From Microbacterium oxydans (GTDB taxonomy: Bacteria > Actinomycetota > Actinomycetes > Actinomycetales > Microbacteriaceae): a stretch of 64,000 nt of DNA. Within the stretch, counting starts at the first letter, position 1. Every line of letters begins with the position of its first letter. A model generated the notes under the pieces. It was not told the origin of the DNA, searched no databases, and saw nothing but the letters and a program-made list of their open reading frames with translations. The stretch is taken from positions 124,001-188,000 of the forward strand of contig NZ_JYIW01000021.1 of assembly GCF_000956525.1 (NCBI RefSeq). The letters are read 5' to 3'. Both the position numbers and the translations under genes were made by a program. Positions 25,355 through 58,479 of this stretch are shown piece by piece.

Positions 25355-25378
25355 GAATCTCGACAACTCGCGTCACGA
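25355..25378 (+). promoter_or_regulatory. Shared upstream block, pilus operon copy
   Basis: GAAT, 12 bases, then CGTCACGA, ending 104 bases before the pilin start. The same layout (GAAC, 12 bases, CGTCACGA) occurs 68 bases before the giant repeat protein at 50715; TCGCGTCACGA is identical in both. The GAAY/CGTC arrangement resembles an ECF-type promoter. The 254-base gap around it has no gene. Confidence 0.4.
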
Positions 25379-25481
25379 TTTCCCTCGACGTGGGTCCGGA
25401 ATGGCGAAGAGGTCACTGCTGGCGAAAACCCGCGGTGCGCCATAGGGGGCCATGTGGCCATACAGGGAGGGAGACGTTCAG

Positions 25482-27002
25482 GTGGCTGAACGCAACACGA
25501 CACAGAGAATGCTGTCCATCATCGGGGTGACGGCACTCGGCCTGGGCGCAGTGATGAGCGCAGGCACAGCCGCATACGCGGCTCCGCAGGACTACGGCAA
25601 CATCGACTTCGATCGCACCGGTTCGCTCACGGTGCACAAGTACCTGCACCAGGACGGCGATGTCGAGGGCGACATCAGTCAGGCCCCGGCTGCCGGTGAA
25701 TTCACCGATCCGGTCGCGGGCGTCGTCTTCACCGCGTACCCGCTGCTCGAGACCGGTACGCCGATCGACCTGAGTGTTCCCGAGAACTGGAACGACCTCA
25801 GCGGCCTCGCCGCCGGCGCCGGATGCACGGCACCTGCCGGATACACGCTCGGAGCGCCGATTCAGCTTCCCGCGACCGACGCGCAGGGCGCCGCGAGCAT
25901 CGAGCTCGCGATCGGCGTCTACCAGGTGTGCGAGACCGCCGCTCCGGCGATCATCGTCGATCGGGCGACTCCGTTCATCCTCACCGTCCCGATGCCGCAC
26001 GAGAGCGGGTGGGTGTACGACGTGCACGCCTACCCCAAGAACGGTGAGGGCGCTATCGAGAAGACGGTCGACCCGCAGCAGGACACCGGACTCGGAGCGG
26101 TGGTCCGCTTCCCCGTGACGGTGCCGGTGCCCACCATGCAGCAGCAGTGGACGGGCTTCGCGATCCGCGACACGCTGGACGACCGGCTCGAGCCGATCGC
26201 ACCGGCTGATGTCGAGGTCACCGCGGGCGGCACGGTGCTCGACCCGTCGTTCTACGAGGTCACGGTCGTCGGCCAGCAGGTCACGATGAACTTCACCGCC
26301 GCCGGCCTCGCCTGGTTGAACGAGGGCCCGAACGCCCACGTCGGCACCCCGATCCAGGTCGTGTTCGCGGGAACCGTCGTCGCGGTCGGCGATGGCACGA
26401 TCTCGAACCAGGCCGAGCTCTGGCCGAACAACCCGGGCTTCGACCCGGACGGGCAGCCTCCGCTGCCCTCCAACGAGGTGAACACCTACTGGGGAAACCT
26501 CGAGGTGCAGAAGCGCAGCGCAGGGACCACCGGCTCTGAGGGGCGCCTGAACGGCGCGACCTTCGAGGTGTACAACGCCGCAGACCCGTACGCAGACGAC
26601 TGCACGGCTGCCGTCGCTGCCGGCGACCCCGTCGTCGTCGACGGCAAGACCGAGTTCACCTCGGCCGGCACCGGAGTCATCTCCATCGCCGGACTGTTCG
26701 TGAGCGACAGCGTCAACCCTGCCATCGACGCCACCAAGCGCTGCTACGTGCTCAAGGAGATCGCCGCACCGTCCGGGTACGTGCTGCCCGCTGACCCGTT
26801 CACCTCGGTGGCGGTCCAGGTCGGTGCGACCACGACCTCCGACAACGTCGAGATCGTGAACACCCAGCAGGAGGTGCCGCCGCTGCCCCTGACCGGTGCG
26901 AACGGTCAGCTCATCCTGATCACCGCTGGTGCGGGCGCGCTCATCGTGGCGGTCGGACTGCTGCTGATGAAGCACCGCCGTCGCGTGGCCGCCGGCGAGT
27001 AA
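25482..27002 (+). CDS. SpaA-type pilus backbone pilin (LPLTG)
   Basis: 506 residues from a GTG at 25482 with AGGGAGGGAG eight bases ahead. Signal peptide about 1-35 (ending AAYAAPQ). The pilin motif is YPKN near residue 184, whose Lys is the likely polymerisation site. A Cna-B-like domain carries the E-box YVLKEIAAPSGY (about 419-430). LPLTG begins at about 468, followed by a membrane helix and a KHRRR tail. Class C sortase should link the Thr of one subunit to the YPKN Lys of the next. It is first in the operon; a hairpin after it may raise its level over the sortase. Confidence 0.95.
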   Translation: MAERNTTQRMLSIIGVTALGLGAVMSAGTAAYAAPQDYGNIDFDRTGSLTVHKYLHQDGDVEGDISQAPAAGEFTDPVAGVVFTAYPLLETGTPIDLSVPENWNDLSGLAAGAGCTAPAGYTLGAPIQLPATDAQGAASIELAIGVYQVCETAAPAIIVDRATPFILTVPMPHESGWVYDVHAYPKNGEGAIEKTVDPQQDTGLGAVVRFPVTVPVPTMQQQWTGFAIRDTLDDRLEPIAPADVEVTAGGTVLDPSFYEVTVVGQQVTMNFTAAGLAWLNEGPNAHVGTPIQVVFAGTVVAVGDGTISNQAELWPNNPGFDPDGQPPLPSNEVNTYWGNLEVQKRSAGTTGSEGRLNGATFEVYNAADPYADDCTAAVAAGDPVVVDGKTEFTSAGTGVISIAGLFVSDSVNPAIDATKRCYVLKEIAAPSGYVLPADPFTSVAVQVGATTTSDNVEIVNTQQEVPPLPLTGANGQLILITAGAGALIVAVGLLLMKHRRRVAAGE

Positions 27003-27082: not shown

Positions 27083-28069
27083 ATGCAGACACGTGATGCG
27101 CCTGAGACGGCGGCACCGGCCGTGGGCACGGCACTGCGCGGCGACCGTCGCGCGGCGGCAGCAGCGCGACGGTGGAAGCCTGGCGGGCTGACCATCGTCA
27201 TCGCCGTCCTCGCCCTCGGTGGGCTCGGTGCCGGTCTCTACCCGATGACGGCGGCGTGGATCACGTCGTACAACCAATCGCGGGTGCTGGTCGGCTACGA
27301 GTCGGCGATCGCCGATGTCGAGCCCAGCGCCGATGACCAGCTGCGGCAGGCTCGGGAGTACAACGATGCCCTGAGTGCCGGTGTCGTGCTGGGTGAGAAT
27401 GCGAACATCCCGGTCGGTGACGGCACGCTCTCGGACGACTCGCTGGACTACACGAAGATCCTCAGCGCGAACGGGGCCGGCCTGATGGCCAGGGTGAAGA
27501 TCCCGCGCATCGATGTGGATCTTCCGGTCTATCACGGCACCAGCGATGCCGTCCTGAATCGTGGCGCCGGCCACCTCGAAGGATCCCATCTGCCCGTCGG
27601 CGGGATCGGGACGCGCTCGGTGATCACCGCGCATCGCGGTCTCGCCAACGCGACGATGTTCACCGACCTCGACCGGGTCGAGGTCGGCGACACCATCACC
27701 GTGGAGACCTTCGGACGGGTGCTGACCTATCGGGTCAGGGAGACGAAGGTGATCGAGCCCGACGAGACCGACACCTTGCGCGCCGAGCCGGGGGCTGACC
27801 TGGTGACGTTGATCACCTGCACGCCGCTGGGGATCAACACGCACCGCATCGTCGTCACGGGAGAGCGGATCACGCCCACACCGGAGGCTGACCTCACGGC
27901 GGCGGGACAGGAGCCGGTGATCCCCGGCTTCCCCTGGTGGGCGGTGCTGGGCGGCGGAGGGACTCTCCTCGTCGCGGCATACGTGTTCCGGCAGGGCTTC
28001 GCCGATGCACGGATGCGGATGCCGGCGCAGCACACCGGCACACAGGACACCACGAAGACGACGTCATGA
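27083..28069 (+). CDS. Class C (pilin-polymerising) sortase
   Basis: 328 residues: cytosolic N-terminus, membrane helix near 34-56, catalytic domain, and a second helix near 280-300, the usual class C arrangement. Catalytic His184 lies in VITAHRGL, Cys246 in TLITCTPLG and Arg255 in NTHRIVVTG. It should cut the LPLTG and IPLTG signals of the flanking pilins and join them into a covalent fibre. ATG at 27083 with GGGGAGAG ahead. The stop overlaps the next ATG (ATGA). Confidence 0.96.
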   Translation: MQTRDAPETAAPAVGTALRGDRRAAAAARRWKPGGLTIVIAVLALGGLGAGLYPMTAAWITSYNQSRVLVGYESAIADVEPSADDQLRQAREYNDALSAGVVLGENANIPVGDGTLSDDSLDYTKILSANGAGLMARVKIPRIDVDLPVYHGTSDAVLNRGAGHLEGSHLPVGGIGTRSVITAHRGLANATMFTDLDRVEVGDTITVETFGRVLTYRVRETKVIEPDETDTLRAEPGADLVTLITCTPLGINTHRIVVTGERITPTPEADLTAAGQEPVIPGFPWWAVLGGGGTLLVAAYVFRQGFADARMRMPAQHTGTQDTTKTTS

Positions 28070-31000
28070 CGACACACACCACAGGGGGAGAGATGCGGGA
28101 GAACAACACATTCGGACCGCGGCGTTCGCGCCGAGGGCCGGGAGGATGGATGCGAAGAGCCGGAGCGGTCTTGGCCACTCTGGCGGTCGTCGGAAGTCTG
28201 GGCATCGTCTACGGCGATGCCGCGCAGGCAGCGACGGTGTACGAGATCGAAGGGCAGTGGCAGAACCCGGTGCCCACCGAGGTGTCATCCGGAGACGCGC
28301 TCGTCTCGGAGTGGCGGTTCAACATCAACGACGATTCGGCCGCGCCCACCAACGAACCGGTCGACAACGTCACGGTCACGTTCACCGCGAAGAACGCGAA
28401 GTTCACCGCGGTCCCATCCGTCTGCCTGGTCTCGGGCGTCGATCCGATCTCGTCGATCTCGGCCGACGGCCACACACTCGTCTGCAACCTGGGTACGCGC
28501 GACCAGGGGACGGCGGAGCTGATGCTGGCCGGCCTCGAGGTCGACGGCTCCACCGGCTCCGGGGTGACGATCTCGGGATCCATCGGCGGTGTGCAGGCGG
28601 TGCTCCCTGAGATCCCGATCATGAACACGTTCGCGATGGATATGAAGTTCGACGGCGGTCGTCCTTCGAACTCGAACGCGGGCGCTCGTCAGGAGCTCTC
28701 CTTCCCGTGGTCGCTGCGTCACGCGCCGGGCTCGGCGGCAGGCCCGAACAGCGTCACCTACGACCTCACGTTCTCGTCGGCAGCGGGTAACACGATCACC
28801 GCGATGGCGCCGGGCTGCGTGGCCCAGAACACCACCCAGGCGGGGCATCCGCATTCGGGAGCCGGCCATCCGGCGGCCGAGACGGCGCCGTTCCCGGCGA
28901 CCTGCACGCTCACCGCGAACGGCACCAACCGGATGCGTCTCACTCTGACGGGCATCGACTACTCGAAGACCCTGAACCCGAGCCTCGACTCCGGCGGCAG
29001 CGCTCTTCCGGTCGAATGGGACGTGGTCGCTGCCGGCCTGATCAAGGTGCAGTTCACCTACACCGACGCCACCGTCACCTCGTTCCAGGCGACGACGACG
29101 CCCTACACGTCGCAGGCGGGAACGACGTCGGTCGATGACACCGCGAACAACTCCAACAGCGTCTCCTCGACGCGAGGGATCTGGACGGGCGGATGGAGCC
29201 TGAACACCCTCAACCCTCCCGCCAAGGGGTCGATCTGGACGGACACGTTCCGCACGCTCGCCGGACAGCCCGCCATGTCCGTGTCCGGTATCCGCCTCCC
29301 GTTGGCCGGGGCGACGCAGAGCACGCAGGTGTGCACGATCGTCGACTCCCGCTACGTCGACGTCACGGATGCCGGCATGGGAACGGTGTCGGGTGGCCAG
29401 GTCACCACCTATCCGGGCGTGCAGTACATGTACTACACGGGCACCGGAACCTCGAACAACCTGAACCCCGCGCACGCCAACTACAACCCGAACACCTTCA
29501 CGTGCAACGGGACGGGGTGGACGAGCACTCGCCCCACCGACATGAGCACGGTGCGCGCGGTCAAGGCGATCATCACCCCGGCCGTGGGCCTCACCATTCC
29601 CGAAGCGGTGGCGCGGCTGTACGTGAAGTCCGTGGTCAAGCCGACCGTGGCTGTCGGACAGGACATCTGGACCTGGACCTCCTACACCCTCGACGGCGGA
29701 ACGACCTGGGCAAACCCGAACCGTGAACTGACACCGGCCAATGCCCCCGTCTCCGGTGTCCTGACGCCGGGGTCGCGGTATCCCTTCACCGGCGGTGGTC
29801 GCGACGTGCTGCGCATCATCGCTGCGACCCCGCAGATCCACAAGACGGTCGATCAGCAGGAGTCGATTCCCGGGGCCACCCTGAATTACACGCTCACCTA
29901 TCGCGCGGAGGCACCGGCGAACGCCACCATCGGTCAGATGGTCGTGCGCGATCTGCTGCCGGCGGGCCTGGAGTACGTCGTGGGCAGTGCCTCGACAGCG
30001 CCGACGTCGATCACGGGTCAGAACATCGAGTGGGCTCTGACCAACGTGCCGACGAACACGGAGTTCATCATCACGTTCAGCGCGCGCATCCCCGCTGATG
30101 CGAAGCCGGGAGACGTGTTCGCGAACAAGGCGACGGCTTCGACCGGGGGTGTCGTGGTCGATTCGAGCGTCTCGACGAAGATCCGAGACGGCGGATACAC
30201 GATGCTCACCAAGACCGCGGCTCAGGCGAAGGTCCCCCACCAGAACGGCGTCGCGCAGGATTCCTGGACCGTGCGCATCTCCTCCAAGGACACCCGCACG
30301 CAGTCGTTCACCGACGCCGTCGACATCCTCCCGTACAACGGCGACGGACGCGGCACCGACTTCACCGGCGACTACGTGCTCAGCGCACCGGTGCAGGCGG
30401 TCGCTGGAGCCACGGTGTACTACACGACCGCCGACCCCGCGACCCTCGTCGACGATCCCGCTGACGCGTCGAACGGCGCGGCCGGCACCGTCACGGGGAA
30501 CACGGTCGGATGGTCCACGACGTACGCCGCGAACGCCACGGCTGTGCGCGTGATCGGACCCGCCCTCGCCCCCTCGGCGATGCAGGAGTTCACGATCGCC
30601 GTCGTCACGAGCGGCGCGACGTTCGAGGATGTCTACGTCAACCGGGCCGAGGCGCGATCCGACCGTACGAAGCTCGTCATGCGCACCTCGAGCCGCTTCG
30701 AGATCGGCGCGGTGAACTCCGTCGCGCTGAAGAAGTACGTGCAGGACGCGGACGGGGAGTGGCATGACGCGAACGACGTCGACGACTACCCCCGGTTCCA
30801 CACCGGTTCGACGCTCACGTACCGTCTGGTGGTCACCAACACCGGTGACCAGCCGCTGCGCGACCTCGTGATCACGGATGACCGCGTCGATCTGGCCGCC
30901 CTCGATCCGCTGCCAGCCGGCCTCGTCGCGGGAGCGGTGCTCCCCGAGCTGCTGCCGGGCGAGGCGAACGCGGTGACCATCGAGTACCAGGTGCCCCTCG

Positions 31001-31584
31001 CCGAGCGACCGGACGGCGGCTACCTCGTCAACACCGCCTGCGTCGCGCCCGCGGATGCACCGGCACCGGCGCCGGGTGAGCCTGCCCCGGTCGAGGAGTC
31101 GTGCGATCCAGCCGGCATCGAGGTGCTGCCCTCGAGCCTGTCGTGGGAGAAGATCAGCGTCGAGAACGGTACGCGGCTCGCGGGGTCGGAGTGGGAGCTC
31201 ACCCCCGTCGCCGCGAACGATCAGCCCGCCGGAGCATCCGTCGCGGTCGTCGACTGCGTCGCGGCCGACGCGTCCGGGTGCACCGGACCGGACGTCGACC
31301 CTGAAGCGGGTCTGATCCGGGTGGCACCGCTGGAGGACGGACGTTACCGTCTGGTGGAGACCCGCGCTCCTGCCGGGTTCCAGCTCGACCCGACACCGCG
31401 ATTCGTCGATGTGCAGGGCGTGACGGCCCTGTCGGAGGCGATCGAGAACGAGCTCTCCGACGTGCCATCGATCCCGCTCACCGGCGGGGTGGGAAGCTTC
31501 AGCTTCTGGATCGGCTCCGCAGCGCTGGTCGCGCTGATGAGCGTGGGTCTGCTGTGGCAGCGGCGCCGGAGAGGCATCGTCTGA
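28066..31584 (+). CDS. Large tip or shaft pilus protein (IPLTG)
   Basis: 1,172 residues if the ATG overlapping the sortase stop is used; an ATG at 28093 with GGGGGAG just ahead would drop nine residues. Signal peptide follows a basic N-terminus (cleavage near QAATVYE). The middle holds beta-rich domains, including a DUF11-like module (QIHKTVDQQESIPGATLNYT onward) and a second one starting SVALKKYVQDADG. The C-terminus has a Cna-B domain (LSWEKISVENGTRLAGSEWE, RLVETRAPAGF), then IPLTGG at about 1136, a membrane helix and RRRR. Last in the operon, it is probably the adhesive tip of the fibre. Confidence 0.92.
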   Translation: MTTHTTGGEMRENNTFGPRRSRRGPGGWMRRAGAVLATLAVVGSLGIVYGDAAQAATVYEIEGQWQNPVPTEVSSGDALVSEWRFNINDDSAAPTNEPVDNVTVTFTAKNAKFTAVPSVCLVSGVDPISSISADGHTLVCNLGTRDQGTAELMLAGLEVDGSTGSGVTISGSIGGVQAVLPEIPIMNTFAMDMKFDGGRPSNSNAGARQELSFPWSLRHAPGSAAGPNSVTYDLTFSSAAGNTITAMAPGCVAQNTTQAGHPHSGAGHPAAETAPFPATCTLTANGTNRMRLTLTGIDYSKTLNPSLDSGGSALPVEWDVVAAGLIKVQFTYTDATVTSFQATTTPYTSQAGTTSVDDTANNSNSVSSTRGIWTGGWSLNTLNPPAKGSIWTDTFRTLAGQPAMSVSGIRLPLAGATQSTQVCTIVDSRYVDVTDAGMGTVSGGQVTTYPGVQYMYYTGTGTSNNLNPAHANYNPNTFTCNGTGWTSTRPTDMSTVRAVKAIITPAVGLTIPEAVARLYVKSVVKPTVAVGQDIWTWTSYTLDGGTTWANPNRELTPANAPVSGVLTPGSRYPFTGGGRDVLRIIAATPQIHKTVDQQESIPGATLNYTLTYRAEAPANATIGQMVVRDLLPAGLEYVVGSASTAPTSITGQNIEWALTNVPTNTEFIITFSARIPADAKPGDVFANKATASTGGVVVDSSVSTKIRDGGYTMLTKTAAQAKVPHQNGVAQDSWTVRISSKDTRTQSFTDAVDILPYNGDGRGTDFTGDYVLSAPVQAVAGATVYYTTADPATLVDDPADASNGAAGTVTGNTVGWSTTYAANATAVRVIGPALAPSAMQEFTIAVVTSGATFEDVYVNRAEARSDRTKLVMRTSSRFEIGAVNSVALKKYVQDADGEWHDANDVDDYPRFHTGSTLTYRLVVTNTGDQPLRDLVITDDRVDLAALDPLPAGLVAGAVLPELLPGEANAVTIEYQVPLAERPDGGYLVNTACVAPADAPAPAPGEPAPVEESCDPAGIEVLPSSLSWEKISVENGTRLAGSEWELTPVAANDQPAGASVAVVDCVAADASGCTGPDVDPEAGLIRVAPLEDGRYRLVETRAPAGFQLDPTPRFVDVQGVTALSEAIENELSDVPSIPLTGGVGSFSFWIGSAALVALMSVGLLWQRRRRGIV

Positions 31585-31600: not shown

Positions 31601-31630
31601 GTGCCACCCGCCGCGCGCGGCGGGTGGCAC
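31601..31630 (+). terminator. Pilus operon terminator
   Basis: GTGCCACCCGCCG and CGGCGGGTGGCAC form a perfect 13-base stem with a CGCG loop, 16 bases after the tip-protein stop. It is strong, without a T run, and separates the pilus operon from the membrane sigma gene. Confidence 0.85.
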
Positions 31631-31727: not shown

Positions 31728-33452
31728 ATGAGTGCTGGGGAGACGCGCGACTCCCTCTCTGATCAGGAGCTCGTGCAGCGCGTCCGCGACCAGGATCGCG
31801 ACGCCTATGCGGAGTTGTGGCGGCGTCATGCCGGCCCTGCCTACTCGGTGGCGCGGACCTTCGACTCCCTCGAGGCTGACGACATCGTCTCGGAGGCGTT
31901 CGCCCGCGTCCTGCGCTCGATCAAGGCGGGCGGCGGACCCACGAGCGGATTCCGCCCGTACCTGATCATGGCCGTCCGCAACGTCGGGCGGCGATGGTAC
32001 GTCCGCGAGACCTCCATCGCCGTGGATGATTTCGGGTACGTGGCCGACCCGAGTGCTCCGGAGGGCGAGCTGTCGGCGGTGGAGAGTTTCGAGGGCGGGG
32101 CCGCGCTGGAGGCGTTCCGTGCGCTCCCTGCCCGCTGGCAGGAGGTGCTCTGGTACAGCGAGGTCGACGGCATGAAGCCGCGCGACATCAGCGTGCTGCT
32201 GGGAGTGGCGCCCAATGCCGTGTCCGCGTTGATCGTGCGCGCCAAGCGGGGACTGCGTGACGGGTGGATCAGTGCGCAGCTCTCCGGTGCGAAGACACCC
32301 GAGTGCCGCGAAGCCCTGAAGAACATGGGAACGCATACGCGCGATGGGCTGTCGGGGCGTGCGCGTGCCACGCTCGAGTCGCATCTCTCCTCCTGTCCGA
32401 CCTGTCCGCAGGCGCTCGAGGAAGCGCGGAACCTCTCGAACCTGACCATGTCGGTGCTCCCCGTCGTCGCGGGCGTCTCCGGCGCGGCCGGCTACCTCTC
32501 GACTCTGGGTCCGCCTCCGCTCTCGGCGGCTTCGGCCGCAGGCCTCGATGCCCTGGTCTCCGAGGCCGTTCCCGGCACGGCCCCTGCGGCACGGCGTCGT
32601 CGGCGCATCCTCCTCCTCGTGCTCCTGCTGCTCCTGCTGCTCGCCCTGGCGGCTCTGGGAGCGTATGCCGCGCTCACCTCGCACCCCGACACGGCGACGG
32701 ATGCCGGAACGCAGCAGCCGAACGCGCAGTCTCCGCCGTCGTCATCGCCACCGGACGCCACTGCGCCGGCATCCCCAAGCCCTGATGAGACCCTGCCGCC
32801 GAGCACGTCTCCGCAGATCTCCTCTCGTCCGCTGCTGCCTGGCGCGGGTCCGGATGCGGGTGACTCCGGCGGCACGGCAGCTGTTCGTCCGAACCCGTCC
32901 GGCCCGGGAGAGAGCCCGTCGACTCCGATGGCGCCCGGGGCCGCGGTGGCGCAGTTCGACGCACGGATGTACCCGAGGATCTCGGGCGATGACGCAGTGC
33001 CGCGTGCCGTGATCGAGATCCTCGACAGTGGAGGCGACGTGATCGCGAGCACGACGGCGCGCGCGGACGGAACCTGGACCGCACACCTGACGACCGCCGA
33101 GGCGGGCACGTACTCCGTGACCGTGCGACAGGTCGTTTCGGGGAGGACCTCGCCCGCGGTCGGACCCCTGACCTTCACGGTGTCGTCACCGCCGCCGGCG
33201 GCGACGCCGGTGTCAGGGGCGACGGTCGATGCGGCGCGATTCCGTTTCGCCTTCACGGCGGAGGCGGGAACCGTCCTCCAGCGTCAGATCGTCGGGGTGA
33301 CGCCCGTCCACACCATCCGGGTCCCGAGCAGTGGGGCCTGGAATGAGTACCTCTCTGTGGAGCCCGGGGAGCACTCGATGCGCCTCCGCTACGCCAACCC
33401 GGCGACCGGCGACTACGGGCCGTGGACGACGTGGAGCTTCACCGCCCGATGA
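31728..33452 (+). CDS. Membrane-anchored ECF sigma factor with zinc finger and extracellular domain (copy 1)
   Basis: 574 residues in one chain. Sigma region 2 lies at about 14-95 (ELWRRHAGPAYSVARTF, DDIVSEAFARVLRS, FRPYLIMAVRNVGRRW). Region 4 lies at about 125-185 (LPARWQEVLWYSEVDGMKPR, NAVSALIVRAKRGLRDGW). An anti-sigma-type zinc motif follows, H219/C223/C226 in HLSSCPTC. Next are a basic stop (RRRRR) and a Leu-rich membrane helix (293-316), a Pro/Ser linker (320-400) and two Ig-like modules (about 405-574, ending GDYGPWTTWSFTAR). It fuses sigma, anti-sigma and sensor, recalling ECF groups with C-terminal extensions such as ECF53. AAGGAGA precedes the ATG. The repeat surface protein follows. 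Confidence 0.9.
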   Translation: MSAGETRDSLSDQELVQRVRDQDRDAYAELWRRHAGPAYSVARTFDSLEADDIVSEAFARVLRSIKAGGGPTSGFRPYLIMAVRNVGRRWYVRETSIAVDDFGYVADPSAPEGELSAVESFEGGAALEAFRALPARWQEVLWYSEVDGMKPRDISVLLGVAPNAVSALIVRAKRGLRDGWISAQLSGAKTPECREALKNMGTHTRDGLSGRARATLESHLSSCPTCPQALEEARNLSNLTMSVLPVVAGVSGAAGYLSTLGPPPLSAASAAGLDALVSEAVPGTAPAARRRRRILLLVLLLLLLLALAALGAYAALTSHPDTATDAGTQQPNAQSPPSSSPPDATAPASPSPDETLPPSTSPQISSRPLLPGAGPDAGDSGGTAAVRPNPSGPGESPSTPMAPGAAVAQFDARMYPRISGDDAVPRAVIEILDSGGDVIASTTARADGTWTAHLTTAEAGTYSVTVRQVVSGRTSPAVGPLTFTVSSPPPAATPVSGATVDAARFRFAFTAEAGTVLQRQIVGVTPVHTIRVPSSGAWNEYLSVEPGEHSMRLRYANPATGDYGPWTTWSFTAR

Positions 33453-33487
33453 ACGACAGCACAGCACTCGTGAACGACAGCACAGCA
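33450..33487 (+). repeat. 17-base tandem direct repeat between sigma and surface-protein genes
   Basis: TGAACGACAGCACAGCA occurs at 33450-33466 and again at 33471-33487, perfectly, with a 4-base spacer. The first copy includes the sigma gene's TGA stop. GAAC within each copy resembles an ECF -35 element, and CGT lies 14 bases after the first GAAC. It sits 51-88 bases before the surface-protein start. Confidence 0.6.
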
Positions 33488-33537
33488 TTCCATGACGCGG
33501 ATCGCCGATTCGCCGGTTCCGGAGGGGGAGGTCGACC

Positions 33538-36054
33538 GTGGTGATCGCCCACGCGCGAAGAAGAGGTGCGCATGATTCGCGCGGCTCCCGTCGGCGCCCG
33601 GTTGCGGCCGCCGGCGCTGTCGCGGCTCTCGTCGTTGGTCTTCTGGCGGCGGTGAGCACGGTGGGAGCTCCGGTCCCTGCCGCTGCGGCTCCCGGCGACG
33701 CGTTCGATCCGGCAGCGCCGGTGGTGTTCATCGCGCAGAACAGCCCCTCGCAACTGCAGCGTGCGCAGACGATCGGGGACGGGTCCTTCGTGTTCAGCGA
33801 CGAAGGCGGGGCTGCGCCGGTCGGCTACAACGCGATCGGCTTCAATGAGGCCGACGACTTCATCTACGCCATGGTGTCGGGCAATGCGACCCCCGGGCTT
33901 CCGCTCGGCTCGCTGGTCCGTGTCGGCGAGGGGGGAACGGTCACGCGCGTGGGCACTTCGGTGTACACGCACCCCGCGACCGGGTCCACCCGGTTCTTCT
34001 CCGGGGCGTTCAATCCCGCCGACGGCCTCTATTACATCTCCGATTCCGGCCCCAACACCACGGTGCATGCGATCGATGTCGCCACCGGAGACGTGGTCGA
34101 CACGATCGACCTCGGCGTGCAGCCGGGCGTGCAGGACTTCGCGTTCGCGGACGGGTTCGCCTGGGGTGCGAACAACGCCGGTGACCTGCGCCGCATCGAT
34201 GTGCAGGCCGGGAGCGTCACCGTCTTCCCCGGAGTGATGCCGCCCACGACCGGCGGCTATGGCGGAGTGTGGAACTTCGGAAACGGGAACCTGGGCTTCT
34301 CAGCGAACGCGACCGGCGACGTCGTCCAGCTCGAGATCACCGATGGCGCCGCAGCAGTCCCCGGCTTCACGATCGTCTCGACCGTTCCCGGCCCCGGGTC
34401 CGACTTCAACGACGGCACGGCCATTCCGGGGCGTCCCGTCGACCTCGACATCGACAAGACCACTCCAGCGACGCATGAGCCTGGCGCACGCGTCAGCTAC
34501 GGGATCATGGTGACGAACAACGGGACCGGCGCCTCGAGCGGCTGGACCGTCACCGACACCCTCCCCGCCGGCCTCAGCAACCCCGCCGTGGTCGGAGACT
34601 TCACCGTCGAGCTGAGCGGGAGCACCCTGACCGTGAGCGGTGGGCGTCTGGCCCCCGGCGAGTCCGCCACCTTCCAGATCGAAGCGGATTCCGGCGCGCC
34701 CGTCGATACCTGCCTGTCGAACACCGCGACGGTGCTCGGCAACGAAGACGATCCCGTCACGGGGAACGACTCGGCGACGGCCGTCACCTGCGTCGTCGCC
34801 GTCCCGGTCGCGTCCTTCTCCCTCAAGAAGTCCGTCGAGCCGGAGATGGCCGCCCCCGGTGACGTCGTCACCTACGACATCGCGGTCGCGAACACCGGAG
34901 AAATCGCCTACACCGACGACGACCCGGCGTCGTTCATCGATGACCTCTCGGGTGTGCTCGACGACGCGGTGTACAACGACGATGTCTCCGCCGGCGGGGC
35001 GATCGACGGTGACCTGCTGACATGGTCGGGCCCGCTCGAGGTGGGGGAGACGCTCCAGGTGACCTACTCCGTGACGGTCGACGATCCGGTCGGCGGCGAC
35101 TTCTCGCTGCGGAACACGGTCGCCCCCGCGGCCACGGGCGGAGTGTGCGTCGATGGTGGTTGCGGCACCGACACCGCCGTCTCGGCGTACTCGGTCGAGA
35201 AGCGGGCCGATGTGCAGAGCGTGGTGGGCGGAGGCGTGGTCACGTACCAGGTGACGGTGACCAACACCGGACGGAGCGCGTACACCGCGGAGGCCCCGGC
35301 ATCCTTCGTCGATGACCTCTCCGGCGTGCTCGATGACGCGACCTACAATGGTGACGCCACCGCAGGGGCCGTCGTGATCGGTGACGAGCTGTCGTGGAGC
35401 GGAGCGCTCGGCGTCGGCGAGTCCGTCACCGTGACGTACTCGGTGACCGTCGATCGGCCGGAGAACGGCGACCGGATGCTGCGCAACACTGTGGCCGCCG
35501 ATGGACCGGGCGGCGCCTGTGCGGATCCGGCGGCGTGTCTCGTCGAGACGCCGGTGGCGGACTTCCAGGTGCGCAAACAGGTGTCCGCCGAGCGCGCGTC
35601 CGTCGGCGACACCGTGCACTTCACGGTCACGGTGACCAACACCGGTGCGGTGCCGTTCACGAGCGACGTCCCGGCGTCGTTCACCGACGATCTGACCGAC
35701 GCACTCCGCTTCGGCACCTACGACGGCTTCGCCAGCGGCGGCGCCACCTACGACGAGCCCGTCCTGTCGTGGTCCGGCGCGCTGGGCGTGGGCGAGACGG
35801 CGACAGTGAGCTACTCGGTGACCCTGAACCGTGTCGGAGAGTTCCGCAACGTCGTGACGACTCCGAGTGGATCGGGCGGCAACTGCGTGCTCGGTTCGAC
35901 CGACGAGGACTGCGGCACCGTGACGACGGTGTCTCCGCCAGGCCTCGCCGTGACCGGCGGCCCCCTGTGGATGGGCGGCGGGCTCTGTGGAGCGCTGCTC
36001 ATGGGGGCGGGGCTGTGGCTCGCCGTCCGTCGACGCGTGGGGCAGAAGGAGTAG
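33538..36054 (+). CDS. DUF11-type repeat surface protein with LAVTG wall anchor (copy 1)
   Basis: 838 residues from a GTG at 33538 with GGAGGGGGAGG six bases ahead. Signal peptide about 1-48. Residues 50-300 look like a beta-propeller-type domain (YNAIGFNEADDFIYAM, GAFNPADGLYYISD, GVWNFGNGNLGF). One DUF11 module (about 300-420) and three closely related repeats follow, each with TYxVTVTNTG, PASFxDDL and GVGExVTVTYSVT motifs. LAVTGG at about 803, a helix and RRRVGQKE end the chain. LAxTG is the motif favoured by class E sortases. It follows the membrane sigma factor and may be its target or ligand. Confidence 0.9.
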   Translation: MVIAHARRRGAHDSRGSRRRPVAAAGAVAALVVGLLAAVSTVGAPVPAAAAPGDAFDPAAPVVFIAQNSPSQLQRAQTIGDGSFVFSDEGGAAPVGYNAIGFNEADDFIYAMVSGNATPGLPLGSLVRVGEGGTVTRVGTSVYTHPATGSTRFFSGAFNPADGLYYISDSGPNTTVHAIDVATGDVVDTIDLGVQPGVQDFAFADGFAWGANNAGDLRRIDVQAGSVTVFPGVMPPTTGGYGGVWNFGNGNLGFSANATGDVVQLEITDGAAAVPGFTIVSTVPGPGSDFNDGTAIPGRPVDLDIDKTTPATHEPGARVSYGIMVTNNGTGASSGWTVTDTLPAGLSNPAVVGDFTVELSGSTLTVSGGRLAPGESATFQIEADSGAPVDTCLSNTATVLGNEDDPVTGNDSATAVTCVVAVPVASFSLKKSVEPEMAAPGDVVTYDIAVANTGEIAYTDDDPASFIDDLSGVLDDAVYNDDVSAGGAIDGDLLTWSGPLEVGETLQVTYSVTVDDPVGGDFSLRNTVAPAATGGVCVDGGCGTDTAVSAYSVEKRADVQSVVGGGVVTYQVTVTNTGRSAYTAEAPASFVDDLSGVLDDATYNGDATAGAVVIGDELSWSGALGVGESVTVTYSVTVDRPENGDRMLRNTVAADGPGGACADPAACLVETPVADFQVRKQVSAERASVGDTVHFTVTVTNTGAVPFTSDVPASFTDDLTDALRFGTYDGFASGGATYDEPVLSWSGALGVGETATVSYSVTLNRVGEFRNVVTTPSGSGGNCVLGSTDEDCGTVTTVSPPGLAVTGGPLWMGGGLCGALLMGAGLWLAVRRRVGQKE

Positions 36055-50623: not shown

Positions 50624-50647
50624 GAACTTCCTGATTTCGCGTCACGA
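50624..50647 (+). promoter_or_regulatory. Shared upstream block, giant surface protein copy
   Basis: GAAC, 12 bases, CGTCACGA, matching the layout upstream of the pilin at 25355-25378. It ends 68 bases before the surface-protein start. A possible ECF-type promoter. Confidence 0.4.
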
Positions 50648-50714
50648 AACGGGGAGCGCGTAATCGGGTATGTGTTGGACGAACGTCCGACCGGTGGCTG
50701 TCGGGAGGATGGCG

Positions 50715-56540: not shown

Positions 56541-56582
56541 GTGGTTCCTCGAACACTGCACACGCAGTGTCCGGGGAACCAC
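56541..56582 (+). terminator. Terminator after the giant surface protein
   Basis: 18-base arms at 56541-56558 and 56565-56582 (GTGGTTCC / GGGAACCAC outside, ACACTG / CAGTGT inside) pair with one G-T and one mismatch around a 6-base loop, 4 bases after the stop codon. Confidence 0.85.
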
Positions 56583-56730: not shown

Positions 56731-58479
56731 ATGAACACCACCCCTCAGAGCATCGAGATGCACGGACTCTCCGACGAGGAGCTGCTGGAGCAGGCGCAAC
56801 GCGGCTCCCCCGACGCCTTCGCGGCGCTCTGGCGTCGGCACGCGGGCGTCGCGTATTCGGTCGCGCGGACCTTTCGGCACCTCGACGCGGATGACATCGT
56901 CTCCGAAGCCTTCACTCGTGTCCTCGAGGCGATGAAGGACGGGAAAGGACCCAGAATAGCGTTCCGTCCCTACCTCGTCACAGCGGTGCGCAACGTCGGC
57001 CGCTACCAGTTCAACAGGCAGTCGGCACTCGCCGAGCGGGAGCACGAGGCGACGGTCGAAGTCGCCGCCCCCAGTGGGGAGGACGTCGTGATCGAGGCCT
57101 CCGAACGCAGCCACGTGGCCGCGGCGTTCCTGTCCCTCCCCACCAGGTGGCAGGAGGTTCTCTGGTATCGCGAGGTCGACGGACTCAAGCCCCGCGTCAT
57201 CAGCGAGTACGTCGGCATCCCTGCGAACGCCGTCTCCGCTCTCGTGGTGCGAGCCAAACGAGCGCTGCGTGACGCGTGGATCACCGCCCAGCTCGCCGAC
57301 GCGCCGACACCCGGGTGCGCCGACGCGATCACGCATCTCGCAGGCCACGCCCGTGGGGCGTTGTCCCCGCGCACGGAGCGGAAGCTCACCGCTCATCTCG
57401 CCACCTGTGAGACGTGTCCGGCCGCACTCGAGGAAGCCGAGCGTCTCTCGAACCTGACGCTCGCGCTCCTTCCTGTCCTGGCGGGGGTTGTCGGTGCCAC
57501 CGCGTACTCCACGCTCCGCGCCGCACCCGCACCGCCGCAAGCAGCGCTCCCACCGGTCGAGGCAGCCCCGGTGTCGACCGGGGTCGCCGCTGCCGGAAAG
57601 CACGATCTCCGACGTCCCCAGGTCGCGGCCGCCGGGCTGGGCGTCGCAGCTCTCGTCGTCGGCGTCGTCATCGCAGCGAACACGATCACCGCCTCCCCGG
57701 ACCCGCGTCGCGCCGCGGGAGCCGCGTATTCCAGCAGCGTCGCAGCAGCGCCGTCGAGTCCGGCGCTCGCTCCCGCGCCGAGTGCCAGCCCGAGCGCGAG
57801 CCCGAGTCCGAGTGACAGCGCGGATCCGATCTCGACGCCGCTGGCCGAAGACACCGGAGTCCAGACGCGCCCGCCGCGTGGCCCGTCGGATCAGACGCCG
57901 CCCGGGGCCGGCTCACCGCCCCCGTCTCGGGAGCGACCTCCCCGGCCGCCGCTCGAGGCTCCGATCGCCGCTCTGCAGCAGCCCGACGCACGACTCTATC
58001 CGCGTGCGGGTGGCAGCCAGGCGCGGCCTGGGGCGAAGGTCGAACTCGTCGACGAGAGCGGGGCGGTCGTCGGCACCGCGACCGCGAACAGCACCGGAGC
58101 CTGGACCGCGCGGGTCACCACCGGAACCGTCGGCACGCATTCGGTCCGGGCTCGTCAGACGGCCGACTCGGAGACCTCGCCCACATCCGCGCCGATGGCG
58201 TACACGGTGTCGGCGCCTCCCGAGCTGCTCTCACCCCGTCCTCTTCAGAGAGTCTCGGCGGCGGAGTTCCTCTTCTCGTTCTGTGCGCCGGCTGGGACGG
58301 TGCTGCAACGGGAGATCGAGGGTGCGACCGCGTTGCAGACGATCACCACCCCCGCGAACGGTCTCTGGCGGGAGTACTTCGCCGTCAGACCTGGGAGGCA
58401 TACGGTCAAGGTGCGTCACTACGACCCGCACAGCGGGGACTACGGCCCGAGCAACATCTACAACTTCATCGCGCATTGA
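56731..58479 (+). CDS. Membrane-anchored ECF sigma factor with zinc finger and extracellular domain (copy 2)
   Basis: 582 residues, same design as the protein at 31728. Region 2 has LWRRHAGVAYSVARTF and DDIVSEAFTRVLEAM; region 4 has LPTRWQEVLWYREVDGLKPR and NAVSALVVRAKRALRDAW. Zinc motif H222/C226/C229 lies in HLATCETCPAALEEAERLSN. A membrane helix lies near 298-317 (AAAGLGVAALVVGVVIAANT), then a long Pro/Ser linker to about 405 and two Ig-like modules to 582 (ending SGDYGPSNIYNFIAH). The linker differs most from copy 1. It follows the giant repeat protein, the reverse of the order in copy 1, and may sense that protein or the wall. Confidence 0.9.
   Translation: MNTTPQSIEMHGLSDEELLEQAQRGSPDAFAALWRRHAGVAYSVARTFRHLDADDIVSEAFTRVLEAMKDGKGPRIAFRPYLVTAVRNVGRYQFNRQSALAEREHEATVEVAAPSGEDVVIEASERSHVAAAFLSLPTRWQEVLWYREVDGLKPRVISEYVGIPANAVSALVVRAKRALRDAWITAQLADAPTPGCADAITHLAGHARGALSPRTERKLTAHLATCETCPAALEEAERLSNLTLALLPVLAGVVGATAYSTLRAAPAPPQAALPPVEAAPVSTGVAAAGKHDLRRPQVAAAGLGVAALVVGVVIAANTITASPDPRRAAGAAYSSSVAAAPSSPALAPAPSASPSASPSPSDSADPISTPLAEDTGVQTRPPRGPSDQTPPGAGSPPPSRERPPRPPLEAPIAALQQPDARLYPRAGGSQARPGAKVELVDESGAVVGTATANSTGAWTARVTTGTVGTHSVRARQTADSETSPTSAPMAYTVSAPPELLSPRPLQRVSAAEFLFSFCAPAGTVLQREIEGATALQTITTPANGLWREYFAVRPGRHTVKVRHYDPHSGDYGPSNIYNFIAH

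What the first reader, a model, noticed from the sequence alone, without database searches (positions are those of the whole stretch)
31728..36054. Membrane-spanning sigma factor next to a wall-anchored repeat protein (pair 1): a possible surface-sensing transcription system
One chain joins an ECF sigma factor, a zinc-finger anti-sigma-like segment (H219/C223/C226), a membrane helix and two extracellular Ig-like modules. Directly downstream is a wall-anchored protein of DUF11-like repeats. A paralogous pair occurs 20 kb away in reversed order. The repeated linkage suggests the extracellular end monitors a surface protein or the wall and the sigma end sets its production. Fusion and linkage are seen directly; ECF groups with C-terminal extensions (such as ECF53, from memory) are known; pairing with DUF11 wall proteins as a functional unit is my inference.
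Basis: partly seen in the sequence, partly recalled or inferred. Interest (0 to 1): 0.82.

Follow-up and report, generated by a model that had tools for sequence, protein, structure and literature searches.

The report
Membrane-tethered sigma factor for surface pili
A bacterial gene switch that appears to be tethered across the cell membrane sits beside genes for sticky surface proteins and pili, and a shared promoter-like sequence in front of those genes suggests the switch turns them on.

Summary
P0003 (31728-33452) is one chain: ECF sigma domains, a zf-HC2 zinc motif (H219/C223/C226), a membrane helix, a Pro/Ser/Thr linker and two Ig/FnIII-like domains. A wall-anchored DUF11 protein follows; a paralogous pair lies at 50.7-58.5 kb. 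All 9 membrane-spanning members of one supported clade (genus most likely Microbacterium) sit beside a DUF11 wall protein or this pilus cluster; 2 of 40 random 20-kb regions hold any anchored protein. The 9-mer CGCGTCACG lies upstream of a surface gene at all nine; in 6 of 9 an RTC follows at ECF-promoter spacing. The full pattern occurs 4 times in this 3.8-Mb genome, 2 of them before the two surface operons here. Relatives outside the clade sometimes carry it, a few before the sigma gene itself; two pilus loci in genomes without a detected fusion carry it too. Most likely the sigma is freed by cleavage and transcribes its neighbouring surface genes. Linkage and motif are shown; cleavage, signal and direct binding are inferred. 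Fused sigma/zinc/membrane proteins are known (ECF48/52/53), so this is a new variant, with Ig ectodomain and pilus/DUF11 partners.

The parts
25369..25396 (+). ECF-like promoter element CGCGTCACGA-N15-GTC upstream of the pilus operon
   Evidence: Conserved in 5 of 5 aligned pilin upstream regions; one of 4 genome-wide matches to the extended pattern
25452..27002 (+). P0001, SpaH/EbpB-family LPxTG major pilin (LPLTG); start between 25452 and 25509 uncertain
   Evidence: NF033902 348 bits against cut-off 95; anchor
27083..28069 (+). P0008, class C (pilus) sortase
   Evidence: NF033745 244 bits against cut-off 160
28066..31584 (+). P0007, large LPxTG protein (IPLTG) with DUF11 and SpaA domains, probable second or tip pilin; start uncertain (caller: 28150)
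   Evidence: anchor
31601..31630 (.). 13-bp perfect hairpin between P0007 and the sigma gene, possible attenuating terminator
31728..33452 (+). P0003, ECF sigma - zf-HC2 - membrane helix - Pro/Ser/Thr linker - two Ig/FnIII-like domains
33538..36054 (+). P0005, DUF6923 plus four DUF11 stretches, LAVTG wall-anchored protein
50638..50665 (+). ECF-like promoter element CGCGTCACGA-N15-ATC upstream of P0006
50670..56537 (+). P0006, 12-repeat DUF11 protein with LANTG anchor; the real start is probably downstream of 50670 (caller: 50826), since the promoter element ends at 50665
56541..56582 (.). imperfect strong hairpin between P0006 and the second sigma gene
56731..58479 (+). P0004, paralogous membrane-spanning sigma factor

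Best explanation
P0003 and P0004 are membrane-tethered ECF sigma factors that carry their own zinc-type anti-sigma segment and an Ig-like ectodomain, and they are dedicated regulators of the neighbouring surface genes: the sortase pilus operon plus P0005 for pair 1, the DUF11 protein P0006 for pair 2. Proposed working: the zinc segment holds the sigma inactive at the membrane; an event at the wall alters the ectodomain or the Pro/Ser/Thr stalk; successive proteolysis (ending with the one Peptidase_M50 found in the genome) frees the sigma; it transcribes from CGTCACG-N16-RTC promoters in front of the pilin and P0006 genes; read-through past a hairpin may top up the sigma. Shown: architecture, linkage, shared motif and its rarity in this genome. 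Inferred: zinc inhibition, cleavage, the signal, direct binding, read-through.
For: Nine of 9 membrane-spanning clade members lie beside a DUF11 wall protein or the last gene of the pilus cluster on the same strand, nearest gap under 200 bp; 2 of 40 random 20-kb regions hold any anchored protein, 0 of 40 a DUF11 or class C sortase gene (Fisher 9/9 against 2/40, 2.7e-8). Three of the four DUF11 genes found in this genome lie in the two clusters. CGCGTCACG is in 9 of 9 300-bp upstream regions; the best shared 9-mer in 500 mononucleotide shuffles reached at most 4. The exact 10-mer is in 7 of 139 upstream regions at 8 clade loci, each before a surface gene, against 2 of 853 at 58 other class C sortase loci and 1 of 665 random. 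The extended pattern has 4 matches in 3.81 Mb, 2 of them these promoters, none for the reversed control. Outside the clade it stands directly before a sigma gene in L131, L039 and, in L040-L042, before the first sigma gene beside sortase pili. Core and spacing resemble the tested ECF41 promoter TGTCACA-N16-CGTC (PMC3426412, passages). A clade member truncated after the zinc motif (L049/L155, one protein) has no surface neighbour. One Peptidase_M50 match in the genome.
Against: The RTC fits 6 of 9 sites; L036, L037 and L114 differ; G061 has no match to the extended pattern and none of G125's 4 matches is at its clade loci. Of 28 extended matches in eight genomes 9 lie at sigma loci; the other 19, two of them in G000, were not examined. 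Only 21 of 101 sigma-fusion loci have an intergenic match, 0.083 per kb against 0.027 random. Two class C sortase loci carry the motif before an LPxTG gene although their genomes (G016, G138) gave no sigma-fusion match at 1e-20: L058 and, weaker, L082. P0005 has no motif in its gap; the DUF11 genes heading the G001 and G021 clusters have none (L233/L234). Hairpins separate surface and sigma genes, so one operon is not assured. 85 of 94 rows outside the clade lack surface neighbours; 55 of 65 class C sortase loci lack the fusion in the stretch seen. The nine loci are related and five upstream regions are orthologous, so the statistics overstate independence. A hydrophobic stretch at about 236-258 in most aligned members leaves topology open. 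The full-length model is poor (pLDDT 58.6).
Confidence: 0.6

Rival explanations
1. The conserved upstream element is read by another regulator, and the sigma fusion is only a hitch-hiking neighbour with another regulon.
For: No direct binding shown; the -10 varies; two pilus loci in genomes without a detected fusion carry the motif; an outgroup LuxR-type gene also carries it.
Against: The motif accompanies some sigma fusions outside the clade that have quite different neighbours, and stands directly before sigma genes in L131, L039 and L040-L042; it is bipartite with ECF-type spacing; the exact 10-mer is rare at 58 other sortase loci (2 of 853 upstream regions).
Confidence: 0.19
2. The sigma factor is a general wall-stress sensor in the manner of ECF52; pilus and DUF11 genes are only part of a wide regulon.
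For: Like architecture to ECF52; SCO4117 is pleiotropic and its mutant loses expression of rdl and chp genes (PMC5826349, abstract and passages); profile matches at 1e-30 occur in 84 of 246 sampled genomes of the class, 19 of 103 genera, some over the sigma part only.
Against: Only 4 extended motif matches in the genome, 2 at the surface operons; each of the two paralogues sits beside its own surface genes.
Confidence: 0.16
3. The linkage is an accident of descent from one ancestral cluster without functional tie.
For: The clade is monophyletic (100/99), and L035 has a DUF11-pilin-sortase-tip-sigma cluster ahead of the same two genes that follow pair 2.
Against: The surface-neighbour label needs at least 6 changes on the tree; the linkage survives in pilus-only, DUF11-only and mixed forms with the -35-like block kept.
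Confidence: 0.05

Closest known systems
ECF52 (SCO4117) and ECF48/ECF53 sigma factors of Actinobacteria
   Same: Fused sigma, zinc-finger anti-sigma-like segment, membrane helix, Pro-rich extension; expected release by proteolysis (PMC8999054 and PMC5826349, abstract and passages)
   Different: ECF52 ends in a carbohydrate-binding module, here two Ig/FnIII-like domains; no sortase-pilus or DUF11 link in the passages read; ECF group not assigned by ECF models
IutY of Pseudomonas putida (ECF243)
   Same: Sigma and anti-sigma in one membrane chain; activation by Prc then RseP (PMC5411451, abstract)
   Different: Works with a siderophore receptor in the outer membrane and a periplasmic anti-sigma domain of another family; no such family was found in P0003 or P0004
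ECF41 sigma factors
   Same: Promoter core GTCAC with 16 +/- 1 bp spacer; where the target gene lies upstream of the sigma gene (about a third of cases) it usually carries the motif and the sigma gene lacks it (PMC3426412, passages)
   Different: SnoaL-like extension, no membrane part
BldN-RsbN of Streptomyces
   Same: ECF sigma held by a membrane anti-sigma (PMC8103513, passages); that it controls chaplin and rodlin surface proteins is recalled
   Different: Two separate proteins, other anti-sigma class, other targets
Sortase-assembled pilus clusters of Gram-positive bacteria
   Same: SpaH/EbpB pilin, class C sortase and large LPxTG subunit in a row
   Different: Titles and abstract starts in the literature searches show no regulator of this kind

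Membership tests
ECF sigma factor | sigma2 and sigma4 domains | tested here: met
   Sigma70_r2 and r4_2 above cut-off in P0003 and P0004, no region 3 family listed; TIGR02937 above cut-off
Zinc-binding anti-sigma (ZAS) segment | H-x3-C-x2-C | tested here: met
   H219/C223/C226 in P0003, invariant in 8 of 8; zf-HC2 above cut-off. Zinc binding and inhibition not tested
ECF52 | membrane helix and Pro-rich extension after the zinc finger | tested here: met
   Hydropathy and sequence only
ECF52 | C-terminal carbohydrate-binding module | tested here: not met
   No carbohydrate-binding family among the Pfam rows for P0003 and P0004 at E 0.1, Ig families instead; fold matches shown are Ig/FnIII-like
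ECF48/ECF52/ECF53 as phylogenetic groups | match to the group model of the ECF classification | not testable with these tools
   Models not among the libraries; classification paper not held
ECF41 | SnoaL-like C-terminal extension | tested here: not met
   No such family listed for P0003 or P0004 at E 0.1
IutY-type cell-surface signalling | FecR-like periplasmic anti-sigma domain (name recalled) | tested here: not met
   No such family listed for P0003 or P0004 at E 0.1
Sortase-assembled pilus cluster | LPxTG major pilin plus class C sortase | tested here: met
   NF033902 and NF033745 above cut-off
Regulation by intramembrane proteolysis | cleavage by a site-2 protease | not testable with these tools
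   Only the presence of one Peptidase_M50 match was tested

The most novel reading that the evidence does not exclude
A one-protein feedback loop for surface fibres: the Ig-like ectodomain of the tethered sigma factor contacts the pilus or DUF11 fibre (or its unassembled subunits) in the wall, and the state of assembly decides whether the sigma is cut free to make more. This would be a sigma factor that reads the product it controls, in a Gram-positive cell, without a separate anti-sigma factor or receptor.
Probability: 0.26. Interest if true: 0.82.

Novelty: new variant of a known kind. Interest (0 to 1): 0.62.

Why it matters
How sortase pili and giant DUF11 wall proteins are switched on in environmental Actinobacteria is, to my knowledge, open. 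Here a candidate regulator, its likely target genes and a concrete promoter sequence come together, so the question becomes testable with one reporter plasmid. Membrane-fused ECF groups have few characterised members (the review calls IutY the only ECF sigma factor in which the proteolytic mechanism has been characterised experimentally), and this clade offers one with a possibly narrow target set, easier to dissect than the pleiotropic SCO4117.

Tried and rejected
Ruled out: the pair as a coding artefact (Pfam, conservation and fold agree). A general law that all sigma fusions sit by surface genes (9 of 94 outside the clade do). A general law that pilus clusters carry the sigma (10 of 65 class C sortase loci in the genus sample: 4 with the close clade, and 6 of the 61 sortases in the 60 further loci; several stretches were cut by contig ends). 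A consensus sigma-70 promoter in 25-37 kb: none found, 0.6 expected by chance.

Led nowhere: a first loose pattern CGTCACG-N16-18-TCSGG was only 22 against 12 for its reversed control, and CGTCACGW-N15-RTC 27 against 7. The 9-mer GCGTCACGA alone is not rare in the window (4 found, 3.7 expected); the evidence rests on position, conservation and the bipartite form. The full-length structure was too poor to show sigma-zinc contact. Sequence search of solved structures with the ectodomain gave nothing solid (best 0.014). The short loci L245-L263 of the class-wide search show no match to the pattern in their first 1.8 kb, so the promoter is not shown outside the window's family except in one unclassified MAG (L115). 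BAP and SiiE head the fold list but over two domains with rmsd above 10; single domains align at 2-3 A to many Ig/FnIII domains, so no function is read from it. One listed paper with an ECF sigma factor and filaments (PMC13082335, passages) concerns a sortase-independent system of Bacillus cereus with a separate sigma factor.

L049 and L155 are one protein held twice in the tree. Some loci end at contig ends, for example L115, L128 and L192, so neighbours there may be missed. Gene calls come from my own codon-usage caller and anchors from a regular expression; the caller missed some sigma genes (such as in L036, L038 and L047), recovered by six-frame search. The surface label means any anchored, DUF11 or class C sortase gene within about 8 kb. 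On rechecking I lowered the main odds slightly because of the motif at two pilus loci without a detected fusion.

Full report
What is there. P0003 (31728-33452) and P0004 (56731-58479) share one layout: ECF sigma2/sigma4, a zf-HC2 segment with H-x3-C-x2-C, a membrane helix, a long Pro/Ser/Thr linker and two beta-sandwich domains. In P0003 the helix follows an Arg run. Their sigma halves are 56% identical. The ectodomain model is confident (mean pLDDT 95.9, 21-row alignment) and resembles Ig/FnIII domains in general. P0005 and P0006 are DUF11 wall proteins with LAVTG and LANTG anchors. Beyond the finding's left edge lies a sortase-pilus operon: SpaH/EbpB pilin, class C sortase, and a large IPLTG protein with DUF11 and SpaA domains. 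Pair 1 is therefore pilin - sortase - LPxTG protein - sigma - DUF11 protein, all on one strand.

Origin. The window is G000:C21:124001-188000 of a 3.81-Mb genome. A same-genus genome, G061, has a contig of the same length (2007344) as a named Microbacterium nymphoidis contig, so the genus is most likely Microbacterium. The genome holds a third sigma fusion at C24:369856 without surface neighbours (L048). It has two sortase matches and one Peptidase_M50 match.

Linkage. Of 198 genomes in the genus sample, 144 have a sigma-fusion match at 1e-20. All nine lie directly beside a DUF11 wall protein or the last gene of the pilus cluster, same strand, nearest gap under 200 bp; L034 and L035 have the pilus cluster next and a DUF11 gene at the cluster's head. 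On a tree of 105 rows the clade is supported at 100/99; its other two rows are one 281-aa protein seen twice (L049/L155) that ends soon after the zinc motif and has no surface neighbour. Outside the clade 9 of 94 rows have a surface neighbour within about 8 kb: L118 (a 2914-aa protein with 11 DUF11 stretches) and its like L119, L039 (a Rib-domain protein), L122, and five rows of L040-L042, sigma fusions near another pilus type. The label needs 7 changes on the tree (at least 6 forced by well-supported branches) against a mean of 16.9 with shuffled labels, so the linkage is clustered yet appears more than once. Control: 2 of 40 random 20-kb regions hold an anchored protein, none a DUF11 or class C sortase gene. 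Reverse view: of 65 class C sortase loci in the genus sample, 10 have the sigma fusion in the stretch seen (4 of the close clade, 6 of the other kind), including the four sortases most like P0008.

Promoter. Aligning the five pilin upstream regions showed a block CGCGTCACG...TCCGG. The -35-like part also stands before the four DUF11 genes of the DUF11-sigma form. Counting all 9-mers in nine 300-bp upstream regions makes CGCGTCACG the most shared, 9 of 9; 500 mononucleotide shuffles gave at most 4 (the regions were chosen after the motif had been seen, and five are orthologous). Sixteen bases after CGTCACG comes RTC in 6 of 9 and ATG or ACT in three. Exact 10-mer in upstream regions: clade loci 7 of 139, other class C sortase loci 2 of 853, random 1 of 665, other sigma-fusion loci 12 of 1469, further DUF11 and flanking loci 0 of 100; L035 has one mismatch and L114 was missed there through a wrong start call. 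Among the other sigma-fusion loci several have a cleaner -10 (CATCTCTC, CGTCTCTC), one directly before a sigma gene (L131), others before a gene next to the sigma gene, LuxR-type in L046. L040-L042 have CGTCACGATTCG before a sigma gene. With the fuller pattern 21 of 101 sigma loci have an intergenic match (0.083 per kb) against 6 of 54 other sortase loci (0.033) and 4 of 40 random (0.027). Against the reading: two of the sortase-locus matches precede LPxTG genes (L058, L082) in genomes (G016, G138) that gave no sigma-fusion match. CGCGTCACGW-N15-RTC occurs 28 times in eight genomes against 3 for the reversed control; 9 of the 28 are at sigma loci, the rest were not examined; in G000 there are 4, of which 2 are 25369 and 50638. 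The tested ECF41 promoter TGTCACA-N16-CGTC has the same core and like spacing, and where the target gene lies upstream it usually carries the motif while the sigma gene lacks it (PMC3426412, passages).

Between the genes. The gap before the sigma gene folds more stably than 60 mononucleotide shuffles in 8 of 9 clade loci (z -3.2 to -7.2; L034 -0.9). A stem of 12 or more pairs is found in 6 of 9 gaps against 12 of 94 control gaps. It may be a leaky terminator that keeps sigma below its target; this is inference and also counts against a simple operon.

Mechanism. Shown: architecture, linkage, motif. From known systems: membrane anti-sigma factors hold ECF sigmas (PMC8103513 passages); IutY, with sigma and anti-sigma in one membrane chain, is freed by Prc and RseP (PMC5411451 abstract), and ECF48/52/53 are expected to be regulated likewise (PMC8999054 passages). 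Inferred: that P0003 and P0004 do so, that the free sigma uses these promoters, and that the ectodomain senses wall or fibre. Topology is argued from the Arg run before 293 and the extracellular look of the C-terminal part; a further hydrophobic stretch at about 236-258 is taken as part of the anti-sigma helix, not proved.

Ancestry. In L035 a DUF11-pilin-sortase-tip-sigma cluster is followed, after one intervening gene, by the same two genes (judged by their first residues) that follow pair 2 here. Yet the tree places L035's sigma with pair 1, not pair 2, so the two genomes share a site but not the same sigma lineage; loss, exchange or duplication at that site are all possible.

Literature. 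Searches for ECF/sigma factor with sortase, pilus/pilin/LPXTG, DUF11 or fused extensions listed, by title and abstract start, nothing on such a pairing; the main ECF classification paper was not held, so absence from print is not claimed.

Noticed in passing
L046:11098-12672, L118:12136-13647, L119:12015-13526, L116:6015-7502: In sister lineages the same promoter motif stands before a roughly 500-aa gene near the sigma fusion; L046's has a LuxR-type GerE domain, those of L118 and L116 have a like C-terminus: a possible sigma-LuxR cascade.
   Followed up: partly
L117:506-1027, L120:9397-9930, L046:9092-9400: A short called gene with the conserved stretch HLRNFE.IGD lies between the motif and the sigma gene; function unknown.
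   Followed up: no
L040:9842-13613, L041:8186-11567, L102:3116-8686: Two sigma fusions in a row beside a different class C sortase pilus cluster, with the motif before the first in L040 and L041.
   Followed up: partly
L058:11196 and L082:4449: The motif before an LPxTG gene at pilus loci of genomes without a detected sigma fusion: orphan promoters, another sigma, or chance.
   Followed up: no
L049:9439-10284: A close-clade sigma factor cut short soon after the zinc motif, without membrane part or surface neighbour: a natural soluble form.
   Followed up: partly
L037 (reverse strand) 1110 and 10388: Two more copies of CGTCACGA with a TGTA element at the same spacing flank the DUF11-sigma pair of G125, one before a 271-aa gene: possible further targets.
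   Followed up: no
window 33538-36054, residues 64-298: P0005 starts with a DUF6923 domain; like N-termini appear in the DUF11 proteins of L113 and L037, while P0006 begins differently.
   Followed up: no
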